The position numbers and the translations under genes were made by a program. DNA of 64,000 nucleotides from NCBI GenBank assembly GCA_937900515.1, contig CALCCU010000112.1, positions 1 to 64,000 on the forward strand. The letters run 5' to 3'. The stretch comes from an uncultured Gammaproteobacteria bacterium (GTDB lineage Bacteria; Pseudomonadota; Gammaproteobacteria; Nitrosococcales; Methylophagaceae). Position 1 is the first letter of the stretch. The number at the start of each line of letters is the position of its first letter. This document shows, in pieces, positions 30,484 to 39,957 of this stretch. The notes under the pieces are model-generated. The model searched no databases. It was not told where the DNA came from and saw only the letters and a program-made list of their open reading frames with translations.

Positions 30484-33206
<2,723 letters not shown>

Positions 33207-34856
33207 CTAGTCAATTGAAAACACCATTATTGAGCCTCCTCGGCTGGTATTAATCTGTGCGTTGCCACCAGCAGCCACTCCTATGTGTAAATGACCATCA
33301 ATTTCAAATGCCATCGGCGCAGCATTAACACCTGCACCTGTTTGAAATTGCCATAGTTTTTCACCTGTTGTTGCATCTAAGGCAATAAAGTAACCATCAT
33401 CACCTCCTGTAAATACAATGCCTCCTGCAGTCGTTAAAGTGCCTCCAATCATGGGTTGTTTAGTCACATACTGCCAAGCAATTTTACCCGTATCGATATT
33501 TACAGCTGAAATATTGCCTGACTGAATAGCATTAGGAATACCTTTAAAAGCCCCTCCTAACCATAATCGACCTTTACGCCAAGGTACACTTCGTACTTCA
33601 TAATGCATTGGCTGATGCAAATTTGAATAGTAAACAAGTCGAGTCTCTTTATTTACAGAACCTGGAGACCAGTTGACGCCACCATTAGCGCCTGGCAACA
33701 TCGGCGTGCCAAGGCCTTTTGTTGGTAACGCAAATAAATTATCTTGCTCAATCATTGGTTCTGAGCGGCGAATTAACTCGCCTGTTTGTCGATCATGCAC
33801 ATACGTCCAGCCGGTTTTCCCACCATGAATAACCACATCAACCAATTTACCATCATCTGTCTTCGCTTGGCTCAGAATTGGTGGTGATGCACTATCGAGA
33901 TCCCAGAGATCGTGTGGGAGGTACTGGTAACCCCATACTAACTTACCAGTTTTCAGGTCTAGTGCTACTAAAGAGTTTGTCCAGCGGTTATCACCAGGCC
34001 GAACCGAACCATCCATATCTGGAGCTGGATTCCCTATTGTTGCAAACAATAGCCCTGTCTTTGTATCAATAGATTTTGTTGTCCATGCAGAACCACCACC
34101 CGTTTTCCATGCATCAGGATATTCACCGGCTTTTATTTGTGCTTTTTCAGCCGCAATATCTCGGTTCAAAGAATTAATACCATCCGCTTTCGTCTGAAAC
34201 GTCCCATACCAACCATACGTTCCGTCGGGTTGTTTTTCACCGGGTTCGGGAATGGTGTACCAACGCCAAATCAATTGTCCAGTCTTACTATTATGTGCGG
34301 AAATAAAGCCTCTAATTCCATACTCAGCGCCCGCGATACCTGAAATAACCATGCCATCATAAACAATAGGTGCTTCTGTTCCTGAATAGCCATATTCAGA
34401 ATTAGATAATTGTGTTTGCCAGGCGAGTAAACCTGTTTTTTTATCAATGGCAACTAGCTGAGCATCAAGGGTTGTCATAAACACATATTCATCATCCAAT
34501 GCCAGACCTCGATTATTAGGACCACAACAAAAATTGGTTAGGTCAAGTACATGCTTATAACGCCAAATCGATTGTCCTGTCTGTTTATTTATTGCATAGA
34601 TGTAGTTATAAGGAGTTGTAATATACATAACGTCACCTTCAACCAGTGGCGTATTTTCAAACGAACCAACAATCCCTGTTTGGAAAATCCATTTCAAGCG
34701 TAATTTATCAATATTTTTTATATTAACTTCTTTATTATTAACATAGCGGGTTTGAGCTAAATCCCCCCCATAATGCAACCAGTCACCTTCATCAGCCTGT
34801 GCTAATGAAACGGATGAAAAGAAAAGAATTAACGATCGAAGAAAAACACTTAACAT
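33207..34856 (-). CDS. PQQ-dependent alcohol dehydrogenase, lanthanide-type motif
   Basis: Periplasmic quinoprotein of 549 residues, signal peptide about 1-21 (ending AQA), with eight-bladed propeller repeats (DTGKIAWQY, DATTGEKLWQF). Expected active-site residues are present: adjacent cysteines 110-111 (FCCGPNNRG), metal-binding Glu178 (GAEYGIRG), Trp258 below PQQ (GGGSAW), Asn276 (GNPAP), and Asp319 with a second Asp two residues later (HDLWDLD). That Asp-X-Asp marks lanthanide-dependent enzymes. No CXXCH haem motif exists, so it needs a separate cytochrome. The ATG at 34856 lies inside the upstream c-di-GMP gene, whose stop is at 34850. Substrate unknown; no xoxGJ or pqq genes nearby. Confidence 0.88.
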   Translation of the reverse strand: MLSVFLRSLILFFSSVSLAQADEGDWLHYGGDLAQTRYVNNKEVNIKNIDKLRLKWIFQTGIVGSFENTPLVEGDVMYITTPYNYIYAINKQTGQSIWRYKHVLDLTNFCCGPNNRGLALDDEYVFMTTLDAQLVAIDKKTGLLAWQTQLSNSEYGYSGTEAPIVYDGMVISGIAGAEYGIRGFISAHNSKTGQLIWRWYTIPEPGEKQPDGTYGWYGTFQTKADGINSLNRDIAAEKAQIKAGEYPDAWKTGGGSAWTTKSIDTKTGLLFATIGNPAPDMDGSVRPGDNRWTNSLVALDLKTGKLVWGYQYLPHDLWDLDSASPPILSQAKTDDGKLVDVVIHGGKTGWTYVHDRQTGELIRRSEPMIEQDNLFALPTKGLGTPMLPGANGGVNWSPGSVNKETRLVYYSNLHQPMHYEVRSVPWRKGRLWLGGAFKGIPNAIQSGNISAVNIDTGKIAWQYVTKQPMIGGTLTTAGGIVFTGGDDGYFIALDATTGEKLWQFQTGAGVNAAPMAFEIDGHLHIGVAAGGNAQINTSRGGSIMVFSID

Positions 34857-37333
34857 TTTTTCCACTCTTGATTAATGATAAAACGCTGTTCAAATTGGTC
34901 AGCTGGGATAGGTGGGCTGTATAAGTAACCTTGAAGATAATCACAGCTATATTCTGTAAGAAAATCACTTTGTTGTGGGGTTTCAACGCCTTCTGCCACT
35001 ACTTTCAGGCCAAGATTATGCCCCATTAAAATCATAGTCTCTATTAATGAAGTGTCCTGACTTTGAGATTGAACATCCATTACAAATGAACGATCAATTT
35101 TCAGCACATCAAAGGGAAATTTTCGTAAATAGCTTAGTGACGAATAACCCGTACCAAAATCATCTAAAGAAATATTGATACCAAACTGTCGATACTCCTT
35201 AAGTAATTTCAATACATTTTGATTAATACCCATCAACACTGATTCAGTAATCTCAATGGTAATTTGCTGGGGATCAACGTCGAATGCTTTTATTTTGTTC
35301 ACTAAACCATCAGCACACTCATCAGAGTTAAACTGCTTAGCTGATTTATTAATGGCAACATGTAAATGATGACCTAATGCATTCCAACTACGAATTTGAT
35401 TGAGCGCCTGATTAATTACCCAATTTCCTATACTCTGAATCAATCCAGTATCTTCCGCTAAGCCGATAAACTCTCCAGGAGGAATAATGCCTCTGGTAGG
35501 GTGATTCCATCTGATAAGTGCTTCAGCGCCATGTAGCTTATTACTTTTTATATCAATGACGGGTTGATAATAAAGTTCAAACTGTTGAGAATCAATGGCT
35601 TGCCGTAGTTCATTAAGCAATACTAAGCGTGATTCAGCCTGTTGTTGCATTGAGTGAGTATAAAAAGAAAATTGATTTCGACCCGCCTCTTTTGCAGCAT
35701 ACATTGCATTGTCAGCATTACGATATAAGGTTTCGATATCATCACCATCCATTGGGTAGGTGGCTATTCCTAAACTCGCAGTAATAGATACTTCTTGTTG
35801 ATCTAGTAAATAGGGCTCTGCGACGGCTTCTAAAATCTTGACCGCAATCATTTCTGCATCAAGTCCCTGCTCAAGATCAGCTAAAACGATAGTAAACTCA
35901 TCGCCACCCAGCCTTGATATAGAGTCACTGTCTCTTAATTCTCGCTTCAATCGAGTAGCCACTTCTTTTAGTAGCATATCTCCAGCACGATGGCCCAAAG
36001 TATCATTGACCCATTTAAAACGGTCTAAATCTAAAAAGAATAATGCAACATTGCGATCTTCTCTTTGAGCAATTTTCAAAGCATTTGATAATCGATCATT
36101 GAATAAATTGCGGTTAGGTAATCCAGTTAAGGAATCATAATTAGCTTGATACTTGATTAATTTTTCATTTTCTTTATGTTGTGAAATATCACTGAAAATA
36201 GAAACATATTGCTCTACCTGACCATTATTATCTTTTATTGCAGTGATTGATAACCATTCAGCATAGAGTTCTCCCCGTTTATTCCGATTCCATATTTCTC
36301 CAGACCAAATACCATTAATATCTAGCTCCATGTGCATTGTTTTATAAAACAATGCATCATGCTTTCCCGAATGAAGAAATGCCGGGGTTTTTCCTAATAC
36401 TTCAGACTTTTCATAGCCAGTAATGAAAGTAAAAGCAGGGTTAACTGAAATTATCTTTTCATCTTTATCAGCAACCAAGATACCTTCAACAGTAGATTCA
36501 AATACTTGCTGAGCAATAACTAGCTGTTGTTCCACCAATTTACGATCGGAAATATCTTGTGTAGTACCAAAACAACGAACTAAGGTACCATCATCATCAA
36601 ACTCTGAATCATTTCTTGCGTGTAACCACCGGATATCACCATTTTCTAATAGAATTCTATACTCAAATTCTGATTTTTTTTCTGCAAGCGTTCGGTTTTC
36701 CATTGCTTCAACTAATGGCAAATCATCAGGAAAAATACGTTGCTTATATACTTCAAGCGTTACACCTTGATGAAGAGGATAATCAGAAGGGTTAAGTCCA
36801 AACACACGATATTCTTCTTCAGACCAACGAGCATATTCATCACCAACGTGCCATTCCCAATTACCGATATGAGCAAGGCTTTGAGCCCTAGCTAAGTTTT
36901 TTTGAATAGAATAACGTTCGCGATCTGACGCTTCTTTTTCAATCTCTAGTTTCCGTCTAGATACAACCGACTCAAGGTGTAAAGGAAGTAGTTCTAGGTA
37001 GCTATTCCCATCTTTAACCAAATAATCTTTACAACCTAGATTCATTGCATTTACAGCAATACGGATATCATCTTGCCCTGAAACCATAATAGTTGGTGTA
37101 ACAATTTCGAGCTCAACCAGTTTTTCTAACAACTGAATACCGCTCATACCAGGCAAATTGTAATCAACAATGACAGCTGAAAACTCTTCATTTAAGATCA
37201 GCTCTAGACCTTGTTCACCAGTAGCAACATGCTCAACCTCATACCCTGAACGTTTAAGGCGCCGTTTGACTAATGCTGCCAGAGATTCTTCGTCTTCGAT
37301 GTATAAAATAATAGGGGGAGAGCTAGCATCCAT
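34850..37333 (-). CDS. Response regulator with REC-PAS-PAS-GGDEF-EAL domains
   Basis: Probable phosphorylation-controlled cyclic-di-GMP enzyme of 827 residues. Domains in order: receiver with acceptor Asp57 (VIVDYNLPGMSG), first PAS (about 150-265), second PAS (about 275-395), GGDEF with intact SRLGGDEF, and EAL with intact EALIRW and DDFGTGYSSLSYL. Both catalytic signatures are complete, so synthesis and hydrolysis are both possible. No transmembrane segment is seen. It begins 5 bp after the single-domain receiver gene, with the histidine kinase before that. Its last codons overlap the start of the PQQ dehydrogenase gene, implying one transcript. Confidence 0.92.
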   Translation of the reverse strand: MDASSPPIILYIEDEESLAALVKRRLKRSGYEVEHVATGEQGLELILNEEFSAVIVDYNLPGMSGIQLLEKLVELEIVTPTIMVSGQDDIRIAVNAMNLGCKDYLVKDGNSYLELLPLHLESVVSRRKLEIEKEASDRERYSIQKNLARAQSLAHIGNWEWHVGDEYARWSEEEYRVFGLNPSDYPLHQGVTLEVYKQRIFPDDLPLVEAMENRTLAEKKSEFEYRILLENGDIRWLHARNDSEFDDDGTLVRCFGTTQDISDRKLVEQQLVIAQQVFESTVEGILVADKDEKIISVNPAFTFITGYEKSEVLGKTPAFLHSGKHDALFYKTMHMELDINGIWSGEIWNRNKRGELYAEWLSITAIKDNNGQVEQYVSIFSDISQHKENEKLIKYQANYDSLTGLPNRNLFNDRLSNALKIAQREDRNVALFFLDLDRFKWVNDTLGHRAGDMLLKEVATRLKRELRDSDSISRLGGDEFTIVLADLEQGLDAEMIAVKILEAVAEPYLLDQQEVSITASLGIATYPMDGDDIETLYRNADNAMYAAKEAGRNQFSFYTHSMQQQAESRLVLLNELRQAIDSQQFELYYQPVIDIKSNKLHGAEALIRWNHPTRGIIPPGEFIGLAEDTGLIQSIGNWVINQALNQIRSWNALGHHLHVAINKSAKQFNSDECADGLVNKIKAFDVDPQQITIEITESVLMGINQNVLKLLKEYRQFGINISLDDFGTGYSSLSYLRKFPFDVLKIDRSFVMDVQSQSQDTSLIETMILMGHNLGLKVVAEGVETPQQSDFLTEYSCDYLQGYLYSPPIPADQFEQRFIINQEWKKC

Positions 37334-37338
37334 TGCTT

Positions 37339-37767
37339 TTATTGTTCCATTGGTGAAGAAAGGATATTAATGAACAATCCAAGTTCTCTTATCTTTTCTT
37401 TAAACTCATTATGAATAACAGGTTTTGTAATATAGGCATTACAGCCTAACTTGTAACATAACTTCACTTCATTCGGATCATCAGTTGTTGTAAGCATTAC
37501 CACTGGGACATGCTTAGTATCCTGATTGGACTTTATTTGTTCTAACACCTCAATCCCATTTTTTACTGGCATATTAATATCCAATAAAATAAAAGGTACT
37601 TCTGGTACCAAATTTTCCAAACGATTATTATCTAGCCAATCTAATGCTTCTTGACCATTTTCTAATTTGATAATAGTACGGTTATACCCCACTCGGCGCA
37701 GGTTACGCTCCACTAATGTTGAATGTGCCGCATCATCATCGACTAACAACAGAGTAGAAAATTTCAT
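37339..37767 (-). CDS. Single-domain response regulator
   Basis: A stand-alone receiver of 142 residues with the acidic pocket DDD at 10-12, acceptor Asp63 (LLDINMPVKNG), Thr in MLTTTDDP and Lys in ITKPV. There is no output domain. It resembles Rcp1-type receivers that serve phytochrome-like kinases. It lies between the hybrid-less histidine kinase and the GGDEF-EAL response regulator, so it may act as a phosphate relay or sink. That role is an inference. Confidence 0.9.
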   Translation of the reverse strand: MKFSTLLLVDDDAAHSTLVERNLRRVGYNRTIIKLENGQEALDWLDNNRLENLVPEVPFILLDINMPVKNGIEVLEQIKSNQDTKHVPVVMLTTTDDPNEVKLCYKLGCNAYITKPVIHNEFKEKIRELGLFINILSSPMEQ

Positions 37768-37819
37768 CGTTTATATCACCCGCTTAATATTCAAGTAGCA
37801 TTTCTAAATTCCACACGGT

Positions 37820-39661
37820 CTATTCACCAAGGCTTGCGGCATCGATAGGCAAGCTAAATGTAAATACTGAACCTTGTCCTAATACTGATTGACATTGAAC
37901 TCGGCCACCCAAGCGACGGATAAGCGTCTGAACATAGGATAGTCCCATGCCATCACCTTGAATATTATGTGATCCAAACCGTTTAAACAAATCAAAAACA
38001 TGCGGAACATCACTTTCAGCAATCCCTTTGCCGTTATCTCGCACATAGAATTCCCAATAATCTGTATGTTTAACCGCACCGATTTCAATCGTACTTTGAC
38101 GCTCTGCTTCTAAAAATTTAGCAGCATTACCAATCAAATTACCAAATATTTGCTCCATCGCGGAGGCATCAGAAACAATGGTAGGTAACTCAGTTACCCT
38201 CACATCAACTTTATCCAATTGATAAGCAATCGCTTTTAAATTATTTTCGACAACTTTAGCAATATCGATTTGCTCAAAAGTGAGATCTCGACGCCCTATT
38301 CTCGATAGTGCTAGGATACTATTAATCAAGCCTTCCATCTTCTCCGCCGCCTTATCAATATAGGTAAGCGACTCAGGAATGATGTCATCAACAATCTGTT
38401 TAACCTGTTCTGGGAGGGCTAAATCTGCTTGTTGAATAACAGCAATATCATCTTTTACTTCTGATGAGAAACCAACAATGCTCACTAAAGGTGACCGAAG
38501 GTCATGTGAAACAATATAGGTGAAAGTTTTTAACTCTTCATTAATATCCCGTAGGTCTTGTGTTCGTTCTTTAACTTGTCGTTCTAAGGTTTCTTGATAA
38601 GTCAGGCGAATTTGTTCAGCTTCAATCCGTTCACTGATATCCCGAGCAACACCACGATATCCTGTAAATTCAGAATGGTCACCAAACATGGGAATGGCAC
38701 TAAATTCCATAGGAACTAAATCACCATTCTGACAGAGTAACATCGCTTGTAAATTAGTAAATGGTAATTTACGCTGCCCCCCCGTTAATAACTCATTAAC
38801 AATGGCTTTGGATTTATCTTCCACCAAGGAAGTTAACTCTTGATTTATGATTTCATCTCTATCGTGTCCTAAAATCTGTCGGACAATTGGGCTACTGTAG
38901 ATCAGTACACCGTTTTCATCAGTCATCCATACCCATTCATTGATTTCTTCAACTAATGAACGATAACGCTTTTCGCTATCAACAATTTTTTGAACAATAG
39001 GATTTGAAATACGTCTAAAAAGTAAACCGCCAAGAAAAATTACAAAAACCGATATCAAACCGGTAATAATAACGCCATGTATGAAAGGTGCTCTTACCTC
39101 ATCCATATCCACTTTGGCGACGATACCAAAGTTAAGCACATCTACAGGTTCATAGGCAGCTAACACCTCTACACCACGATAATCTTTACCAACCATCACC
39201 CCTGACTCGACAAATAAAGCCCGTCGCATCGCTTCAGAATTACCTGAATAGAGAGGGATTGGTTCAAGCTCATCTGGCTTTCCATGGCGATGGGCTAATA
39301 GAAAAACAATATCCTCGCCCTCTATGCCTGCGATTAGAAATTCACCTGTTTTTCCTATGCCTTCATAATTGCTATGAGCATCTCTTAATTGACTAATAGT
39401 GTCAGCAGCAGCTCTTTCTGACAAAAGTGATGTAGGACCGCGTTCTCCTACCGGCGTTTCCCAATCAATTCTATTTGTTCGACGATTATACCTAGCCATA
39501 GCTTCAATTAAACGAGCTTGACTTTGTGCTGTCGCAACTAAACTCTGGCTTCGTTCTTCAAAGGAAACCTGATATAAAATTACATTCGTTATTGCCATAA
39601 CAATAAATGCAACAGCACTCATTATTATTAATAGAAAGTAGAAACTACGCTTTTCTTGCAT
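37820..39661 (-). CDS. Cache-PAS sensor histidine kinase
   Basis: Membrane sensor kinase of 613 residues. Transmembrane helices at about 8-30 and 194-216 flank a periplasmic Cache-like domain (GKTGEFLIAGIEGEDIVFLL, then FGIVAKVDMDEVRAPF). A cytoplasmic PAS domain (about 230-345), a short coiled coil, a HisKA domain with His386 (YIVSHDLRSPLVSIVGFSSE) and an HATPase domain (NLIGNAAKFL, DNGKGI, GMGLSYVQTLI) follow. The kinase core is like phytochrome-type kinases. It heads the cluster with two receiver proteins and the PQQ dehydrogenase. The signal sensed is unknown. Confidence 0.9.
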   Translation of the reverse strand: MQEKRSFYFLLIIMSAVAFIVMAITNVILYQVSFEERSQSLVATAQSQARLIEAMARYNRRTNRIDWETPVGERGPTSLLSERAAADTISQLRDAHSNYEGIGKTGEFLIAGIEGEDIVFLLAHRHGKPDELEPIPLYSGNSEAMRRALFVESGVMVGKDYRGVEVLAAYEPVDVLNFGIVAKVDMDEVRAPFIHGVIITGLISVFVIFLGGLLFRRISNPIVQKIVDSEKRYRSLVEEINEWVWMTDENGVLIYSSPIVRQILGHDRDEIINQELTSLVEDKSKAIVNELLTGGQRKLPFTNLQAMLLCQNGDLVPMEFSAIPMFGDHSEFTGYRGVARDISERIEAEQIRLTYQETLERQVKERTQDLRDINEELKTFTYIVSHDLRSPLVSIVGFSSEVKDDIAVIQQADLALPEQVKQIVDDIIPESLTYIDKAAEKMEGLINSILALSRIGRRDLTFEQIDIAKVVENNLKAIAYQLDKVDVRVTELPTIVSDASAMEQIFGNLIGNAAKFLEAERQSTIEIGAVKHTDYWEFYVRDNGKGIAESDVPHVFDLFKRFGSHNIQGDGMGLSYVQTLIRRLGGRVQCQSVLGQGSVFTFSLPIDAASLGE

Positions 39662-39702
39662 AACTCAATCGTGACTGACTATTAAAATCAATCAACAATG
39701 TA

Positions 39703-39957
<255 letters not shown>

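What the first reader, a model, noticed from the sequence alone, without database searches (positions are those of the whole stretch)
33207..39661. Two-component/c-di-GMP relay overlapping a putative lanthanide-type PQQ dehydrogenase
Four same-strand genes lie in order: Cache-PAS histidine kinase, single-domain receiver, REC-PAS-PAS-GGDEF-EAL, PQQ alcohol dehydrogenase. The gaps are 52 and 5 bp and the last pair overlaps by 7 bp. Seen directly: intact GGDEF and EAL motifs, the kinase His386, and the dehydrogenase residues including Asp319-X-Asp321. From family knowledge: the second Asp marks lanthanide-dependent enzymes (XoxF, PedH). Inference: alcohol oxidation and c-di-GMP output share an input, and the periplasmic Cache domain may sense an alcohol or oxidation product. 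I know of no named system with this layout.
Basis: partly seen in the sequence, partly recalled or inferred. Interest (0 to 1): 0.72.

Follow-up and report, generated by a model that had tools for sequence, protein, structure and literature searches.

The report
Sensor–c-di-GMP operon ending in PQQ dehydrogenase
A bacterium of a methanol-using family carries four back-to-back genes that join a sensor kinase and a c-di-GMP switch to a secreted alcohol-oxidising enzyme; the arrangement is real and also found in a related genus, but it is rare, built from familiar parts, and its metal and signal are not shown.

Summary
The four genes, their order, gaps (52 and 5 bp) and 7-bp overlap are as described. 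Kinase, receiver, GGDEF, EAL and dehydrogenase key residues are present. The 'Cache' label is not confirmed. The genome lies in the family of Methylophaga. The block recurs, same order and site, in one genome of another genus, with the last overlap again present; kinase sensor and orthologous dehydrogenase were found in the same 2 of 57 family genomes. The wider dehydrogenase subfamily mostly travels with cytochrome c or an ankyrin protein; none of 80 named loci shows the block. The D-x-D metal motif is fixed in those 80, but E. coli Gcd, reported to take Ca or Mg, has it too, and Ala177 and Pro279 are MxaF-like; lanthanide use is plausible, unproven. No receiver protein carries a DNA-binding domain, so the kinase cannot directly control dehydrogenase transcription. 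GGDEF genes beside xoxF and a swarming/biofilm kinase in the ped cluster are already in print. Verdict: new variant of a known kind, modest interest.

The parts
37820..39661 (-). Membrane histidine kinase: TM1, ~150-aa periplasmic sensor of unassigned family, TM2, PAS, HisKA (His386), HATPase
37339..37767 (-). Single-domain response regulator (REC only), phospho-acceptor in LLDINMP, conserved Lys present
34850..37333 (-). REC-PAS-PAS-GGDEF-EAL protein; GGDEF and RxxD I-site intact, EAL motifs intact: potential diguanylate cyclase and phosphodiesterase
33207..34856 (-). Secreted PQQ-dependent dehydrogenase of an uncharacterised D-x-D subfamily (Cys-Cys, E178, N276, D319, D321)
34850..34856 (-). 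7-bp stop/start overlap (ATGTTAA) between the GGDEF-EAL and dehydrogenase genes; 13-bp overlap with a GGAGG ribosome site in G033
39703..39957 (-). Ferredoxin-like gene upstream (41 bp from the kinase start); next to leuS in several relatives that lack the block
30484..32940 (-). leuS, downstream border of the block

Best explanation
A four-gene operon-like unit found in two genera of the Methylophaga family. A membrane kinase with a periplasmic sensor phosphorylates a stand-alone receiver and the receiver of a two-headed c-di-GMP enzyme, so that a periplasmic cue sets c-di-GMP. The fourth gene, translated by overlap with the third, makes a secreted PQQ dehydrogenase that probably oxidises an alcohol. 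Shown: gene order, overlapping ends, intact catalytic and phosphorylation residues, presence in a second genus. Inferred: co-transcription; kinase-to-receiver phosphotransfer; that the dehydrogenase is co-expressed with, not transcriptionally controlled by, the relay; that the biological sense is to adjust attachment or motility where its substrate is found. Metal: lanthanide possible, calcium not excluded.
For: Order, gaps, overlap. Same four genes, order and site in G033, amino-acid identity 73/56/56/59% (dehydrogenase/GGDEF-EAL/receiver/kinase), within the 55-85% range of six flanking genes; synonymous distance could not be computed (saturated) in 9 of the 10 genes compared, so linkage is old. 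The last overlap, with a GGAGG site, and a 4-bp overlap before it are also in G033. Kinase sensor (E <= 1e-8) and orthologous dehydrogenase (next best in the family 54%) were found in the same 2 of 57 family genomes. Key residues intact in both genomes (the G033 EAL Asn missed the pattern and was read). pqqE and pqqBCD-like genes are in the genome. Paralogues of the dehydrogenase in the family lie near other sensor systems: an sCache_3 kinase plus sigma-54 regulator, or a PAS-MCP plus GGDEF-EAL protein.
Against: Only two genomes hold the block and they most simply descend from one event at a site whose flanks are syntenic too, so they count as one observation. No transcript data. The kinase gene starts 41 bp after the ferredoxin gene, so the transcript could begin further up. 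The 80 named homologues do not keep these regulators, and related sensor kinases elsewhere do not keep a PQQ dehydrogenase (13 regions). No cytochrome c gene is in the block, and a search with the first 59 residues of the partner cytochrome found none in G000.
Confidence: 0.55

Rival explanations
1. Passenger linkage. A self-contained kinase, receiver and GGDEF-EAL module and an unrelated dehydrogenase gene were placed together once at the leuS site; they share an mRNA by accident and have no common function.
For: Only 2 of 57 family genomes show it; two related sensor kinases elsewhere (L188, L191) lie with receiver and GGDEF genes and no PQQ gene; the subfamily often goes with cytochrome c and ankyrin genes; the leuS upstream site is variable: 8 of the 30 loci examined carry some other GGDEF gene there.
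Against: Overlapping ends kept in two genera despite saturated synonymous divergence; both halves are present or absent together in the 57 genomes searched.
Confidence: 0.3
2. The dehydrogenase is a substrate-converting front end of the sensor: it oxidises a periplasmic alcohol and the kinase reads the product or the redox change, so that c-di-GMP reports alcohol oxidation.
For: The enzyme has a signal-peptide-like N terminus and the sensor lies between two membrane helices; joint presence in 2 genomes; the dehydrogenase is better conserved than the regulators.
Against: No ligand, product or interaction evidence; in Pseudomonas aeruginosa the ethanol effect on c-di-GMP runs through WspA/WspR and does not need ethanol catabolism (PMC4207824, passages).
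Confidence: 0.12

Closest known systems
ped/exa gene cluster of Pseudomonas (PedE/PedH, PedS2-PedR2, PedS1-PP_2663)
   Same: PQQ alcohol dehydrogenases encoded with two-component genes, one of which (PedS1, NahK-like) is proposed to act on swarming and biofilm dispersal; PedH is the nearest solved structure by sequence and fold; PMC12997753: one section and passages seen
   Different: There the metal switch uses a LuxR-type regulator (PedR2); a term search found 0 mentions of c-di-GMP or GGDEF in that paper; the dehydrogenase here is 30% identical to PedH in the fold alignment
xoxF clusters with GGDEF genes in methylotrophs
   Same: A GGDEF gene close to xoxF is in print (PMC5784242 passages, citing a reference that I take to be the 2014 Keltjens review, not held; legend in PMC11845868); a diguanylate cyclase gene of strain 22A was upregulated with La
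   Different: Those are XoxF proteins (29-32% identical in the alignments, separate branch); the kinase, receiver, REC-PAS-PAS-GGDEF-EAL, dehydrogenase layout was not described in the passages seen
PQQ dehydrogenase + cytochrome c + ankyrin clusters of Burkholderiales, Hyphomicrobium and Methylophaga relatives
   Same: Same dehydrogenase subfamily, 46-57% identical, same D-x-D motif
   Different: Cytochrome c and/or ankyrin gene next to it; in G016 an MFS transporter, an sCache_3 kinase and a sigma-54 regulator besides (Pfam), with similar neighbours in G007 and G033 by BLAST and reading; lacks the block described here

Membership tests
PQQ-dependent alcohol dehydrogenase (methanol/ethanol superfamily) | PQQ propeller, adjacent-Cys motif, Glu/Asn/Asp metal site | tested here: met
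   PF01011 E 2.9e-80; Cys-Cys, E178, N276, D319; fold match PedH E 3.9e-44. TIGR03075 scores 441 bits, below its cut-off of 480.
Lanthanide-dependent PQQ dehydrogenase (XoxF, PedH/ExaF) | Second Asp of D-x-D | tested here: met
   D321 aligned to the XoxF/PedH Asp; MxaF-type proteins in the same table have Ala there
Lanthanide-dependent PQQ dehydrogenase (XoxF, PedH/ExaF) | Gly171 and Thr259 (XoxF features named in PMC11845868) | tested here: not met
   Ala177 and Pro279 in the window protein. PedH has Gly but also Pro, so Pro does not exclude lanthanide use.
Lanthanide-dependent PQQ dehydrogenase (XoxF, PedH/ExaF) | D-x-D found only in lanthanide enzymes | tested here: not met
   E. coli Gcd has D-x-D in the same column
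XoxF / MxaF clade | Branching with XoxF-type or MxaF-type proteins (named by me from their motifs) | tested here: not met
   Separate branch, support 100/100; the tool warned that long branches meet there; PedH and PedE were not in the tree
Lanthanide-dependent PQQ dehydrogenase (XoxF, PedH/ExaF) | Activity with La/Ce and not Ca | not testable with these tools
   needs purified enzyme
Cache-domain sensor kinase | Cache fold in the periplasmic region | tested here: inconclusive
Two-component c-di-GMP relay | Kinase H-box and ATP site, receiver Asp, GGDEF/EAL motifs, adjacent genes | tested here: met
Two-component c-di-GMP relay | Phosphotransfer and c-di-GMP output | not testable with these tools
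   needs biochemistry
ped/exa-type regulated dehydrogenase cluster | DNA-binding response regulator in the cluster | tested here: not met
   neither receiver protein has a DNA-binding domain by Pfam

The most novel reading that the evidence does not exclude
A dedicated 'oxidation-reporting' c-di-GMP relay: a secreted, possibly lanthanide-using PQQ dehydrogenase made in fixed ratio with a kinase and a two-headed c-di-GMP enzyme converts a periplasmic alcohol, and the kinase reads product or redox state to switch the cell between swimming and attachment.
Probability: 0.12. Interest if true: 0.65.

Novelty: new variant of a known kind. Interest (0 to 1): 0.36.

Why it matters
If the coupling is functional it would be a compact example of an alcohol-oxidising enzyme made on the same message as a c-di-GMP switch, and would give the scattered reports of GGDEF genes near lanthanide-type dehydrogenases a testable unit. 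It also points to a widespread D-x-D PQQ dehydrogenase subfamily, for which I found no characterised member among the PDB hits, and whose metal is open.

Tried and rejected
Rejected: 'the D-x-D motif settles lanthanide use' (Gcd control). Rejected, as far as composition goes: 'a recent foreign insert'; G+C of the four genes is 34-42% against 40% for the window and 39-41% for leuS, ferredoxin and coaD. Rejected: 'a frame or assembly artefact' (intact ORFs in two genomes). Not settled: the sensor fold; Pfam, the PDB profile search and a single-sequence model all failed. Promoter and terminator scans gave no more sites than shuffles (21 against 25.3; 5 against 5.0) and are not used.

In the ORF survey, 17 of 80 loci showed no labelled dehydrogenase because of the way overlapping frames were filtered; tblastn finds it in 80 of 80 and raises the counts of loci with any relative of the GGDEF-EAL protein, receiver and kinase from 5, 2 and 4 to 7, 6 and 7 of 80. 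31 of the 80 loci are shorter than 21 kb and 16 have less than 6.5 kb upstream, so the block could lie unseen there. In one search, matches spanning under 350 query residues were dropped. Of the 15 sensor matches outside the own genome, 14 lie in the 13 regions fetched and one (L153) was not fetched. Of the 55 family genomes with a leuS match, 30 loci were given and examined. G393 has a 59% identical dehydrogenase fragment at a contig start, so its upstream genes cannot be seen. Presence of the receiver and GGDEF-EAL genes across the family was not searched separately. Many family genomes are incomplete drafts (completeness 55-100%).
Full report
What is there. Gaps are 52 and 5 bp and the last pair overlaps by 7 bp, ATGTTAA. 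Pfam assigns PAS, HisKA and HATPase to the kinase, one receiver domain to the small protein, receiver, two PAS, GGDEF and EAL to the third, and the PQQ propeller to the fourth. The kinase His386, the receivers' aspartates, the GGDEF motif with an RxxD site, and the EAL motifs are intact. The dehydrogenase starts with a hydrophobic stretch (residues 1-19) and has the Cys-Cys pair, E178, N276, D319 and D321.

Where it lies. The window is part of contig C112 of a 2.75-Mb draft genome in 289 contigs. The genome has PqqE (565.7 bits) with genes upstream that I read as pqqB, C and D, and three further PQQ dehydrogenases with XoxF-type motifs. One of these has a kinase and a LuxR-type regulator directly upstream.

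How conserved the block is. In 57 family genomes the kinase sensor is found in 2, G000 and G033, and an orthologous dehydrogenase (74%; next best 54%) in the same 2; in 63 genomes of the order the sensor is again found only in these 2. G033 is in another genus. It has all four genes in the same order between leuS and ferredoxin, coaD and rsmD, with a 13-bp overlap at the last junction, a GGAGG ribosome site, and a 4-bp overlap at the receiver/GGDEF junction. Identities between the two genomes are 73, 56, 56 and 59% for dehydrogenase, GGDEF-EAL, receiver and kinase; six flanking genes lie between 55 and 85%; the synonymous distance is beyond computing for all but leuS (1.84). Of 30 leuS loci examined (of 55 genomes with a match), 2 have the block's dehydrogenase upstream, 6 have the ferredoxin gene close to leuS, 2 have coaD nearby without a called ferredoxin ORF, 8 have some other GGDEF gene upstream and 12 have other genes. 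The two genomes count as one evolutionary event, but one that has kept overlapping ends for a long time.

What the dehydrogenase is. The ORF survey around them finds the ankyrin gene in 48 of 80 loci and a cytochrome c in 27 and in 19 by two query sequences. A tblastn recount finds any relative of the GGDEF-EAL protein in 7, of the receiver in 6 and of the kinase in 7 of 80, most of them at 23-36% identity; none shows the kinase, receiver and GGDEF-EAL genes in order upstream of the dehydrogenase. Nearest to it is L125, where kinase, receiver and EAL-domain relatives lie just downstream on the opposite strand; L079 (Methylotenera) has GGDEF-EAL relatives upstream on the opposite strand. At least 6.5 kb of upstream DNA was at hand for 64 of 80. 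In the wider samples, homologues at the set thresholds were found in 11 of 369 class genomes and 2 of 398 phylum genomes, the own one included in both; of 8 such loci fetched, 5 have the ankyrin gene and 4 the cytochrome next to the dehydrogenase. A tree of 44 proteins groups the window protein with G033 and with a Geminicoccaceae protein, L057 (98/99), apart from XoxF- and MxaF-type proteins (100/100), with a warning that long branches meet there. L057 shows none of the regulators.

Metal. All 80 named relatives have W-D-x-D, as has every row at 45% identity or more; MxaF-type proteins of the family have W-D-[YF]-A and XoxF-type ones W-D-[YF]-D with one exception, L038. E. coli Gcd has W-D-M-D in the same column. 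PMC11996626 (passages) takes D-x-D as an indicator of lanthanide binding, but says that m-GDH, which can complex with Ca, Mg, Zn and Sr, also has it and predicts it to be facultative. PMC11845868 (passages) names Gly171 and Thr259 as further XoxF features; the window protein has Ala177 and Pro279 there. Ala177 is shared by G033 and L057, whereas 79 of the 80 named relatives have Gly. PedH, a lanthanide enzyme, has Gly and Pro. The nearest solved structure is PedH by sequence and by fold of a model with mean pLDDT 79. Lanthanide use is therefore plausible and not shown.

The sensor. Two hydrophobic helices bracket about 150 residues. The region is a family: 13 of 369 class genomes including the own one have it at E 1e-15, attached to various kinases and GGDEF-EAL proteins. 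In the 13 regions fetched around such genes no PQQ dehydrogenase was found, by ORF search and by tblastn (several regions are cut by contig ends); in two (L188, L191) a gene with this sensor lies with receiver and GGDEF genes, so a similar regulatory set can exist alone. It is not recognised as Cache at usable significance; the structure attempt failed.

Mechanism. Neither receiver protein has a DNA-binding domain, so the kinase can act on c-di-GMP but not directly on the dehydrogenase promoter; the link to the enzyme is most simply co-expression through overlapping genes. Whether the kinase reads anything the enzyme makes is unknown. Within the family, paralogues of the dehydrogenase are also near signalling genes: in G016 an sCache_3 kinase with a sigma-54 regulator, an MFS transporter, cytochrome c and ankyrin protein, with similar neighbours in G007 and G033; in G030 a PAS chemoreceptor and a GGDEF-EAL protein upstream. 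So linkage of this subfamily to sensors recurs locally, with different outputs.

Known work. [quoted passage not shown] PMC11845868's gene-cluster legend includes GGDEF. [quoted passage not shown] PMC4207824 (passages) shows ethanol raising c-di-GMP through WspR, without need for ethanol catabolism. A search joining lanthanide, alcohol dehydrogenase, PQQ and c-di-GMP gave 1 paper, and one joining quinoprotein, diguanylate cyclase, alcohol dehydrogenase, operon and response regulator gave the same one. The listings (11 of 11 papers; 20 of 47; 4 of 4; 5 of 5; 6 of 6; 3 of 3) showed no title or abstract start naming the four-gene layout; those papers were not read beyond what is said here. Only open-licence papers are held.

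Judgement. A real, old, rare operon-like arrangement; ordinary parts; one new combination. Interest is moderate because it makes a loosely reported link (c-di-GMP genes near lanthanide-type dehydrogenases) concrete and testable.

Noticed in passing
L048 7783-9534, L049 8307-10124, L050 8834-10597 (G035, G030, G034): PQQ-propeller paralogues with Gly in place of the catalytic Asp (W-G-Y-D) and two insertions; Lys stands for the metal Glu in L048 while L050 keeps Glu. Matches of the same span (46-48% over residues 171 to about 547) occur in 16 of 57 family genomes, of which only these three sequences were looked at. Possibly non-catalytic.
   Followed up: partly
L040, L043-L047, L057-L136, L212-L218: Recurrent neighbourhood of D-x-D PQQ dehydrogenase, c-type cytochrome and ankyrin-repeat protein with varying gene orientation; role of the ankyrin protein unexplained.
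   Followed up: partly
window 32940-39957 and loci L154-L183: The leuS upstream site is variable within the family: ferredoxin gene close by, other GGDEF genes, other genes, or the four-gene block.
   Followed up: partly
L125 2174-7355: In a freshwater proteobacterial contig, relatives of the EAL part, receiver and kinase lie convergently just downstream of the subfamily's dehydrogenase and cytochrome genes.
   Followed up: no
L043-L047 (G015, G007, G016, G033, G002): The paralogous dehydrogenase cluster lies near genes that I read as transhydrogenase subunits, and in L043-L046 near an MFS transporter (Pfam only for L045) that I recall as oxalate/formate-antiporter-like.
   Followed up: no
L221 2327-6329: A XoxF-type gene of the same genome has its own kinase (HisKA_3) and LuxR-type regulator directly upstream.
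   Followed up: no
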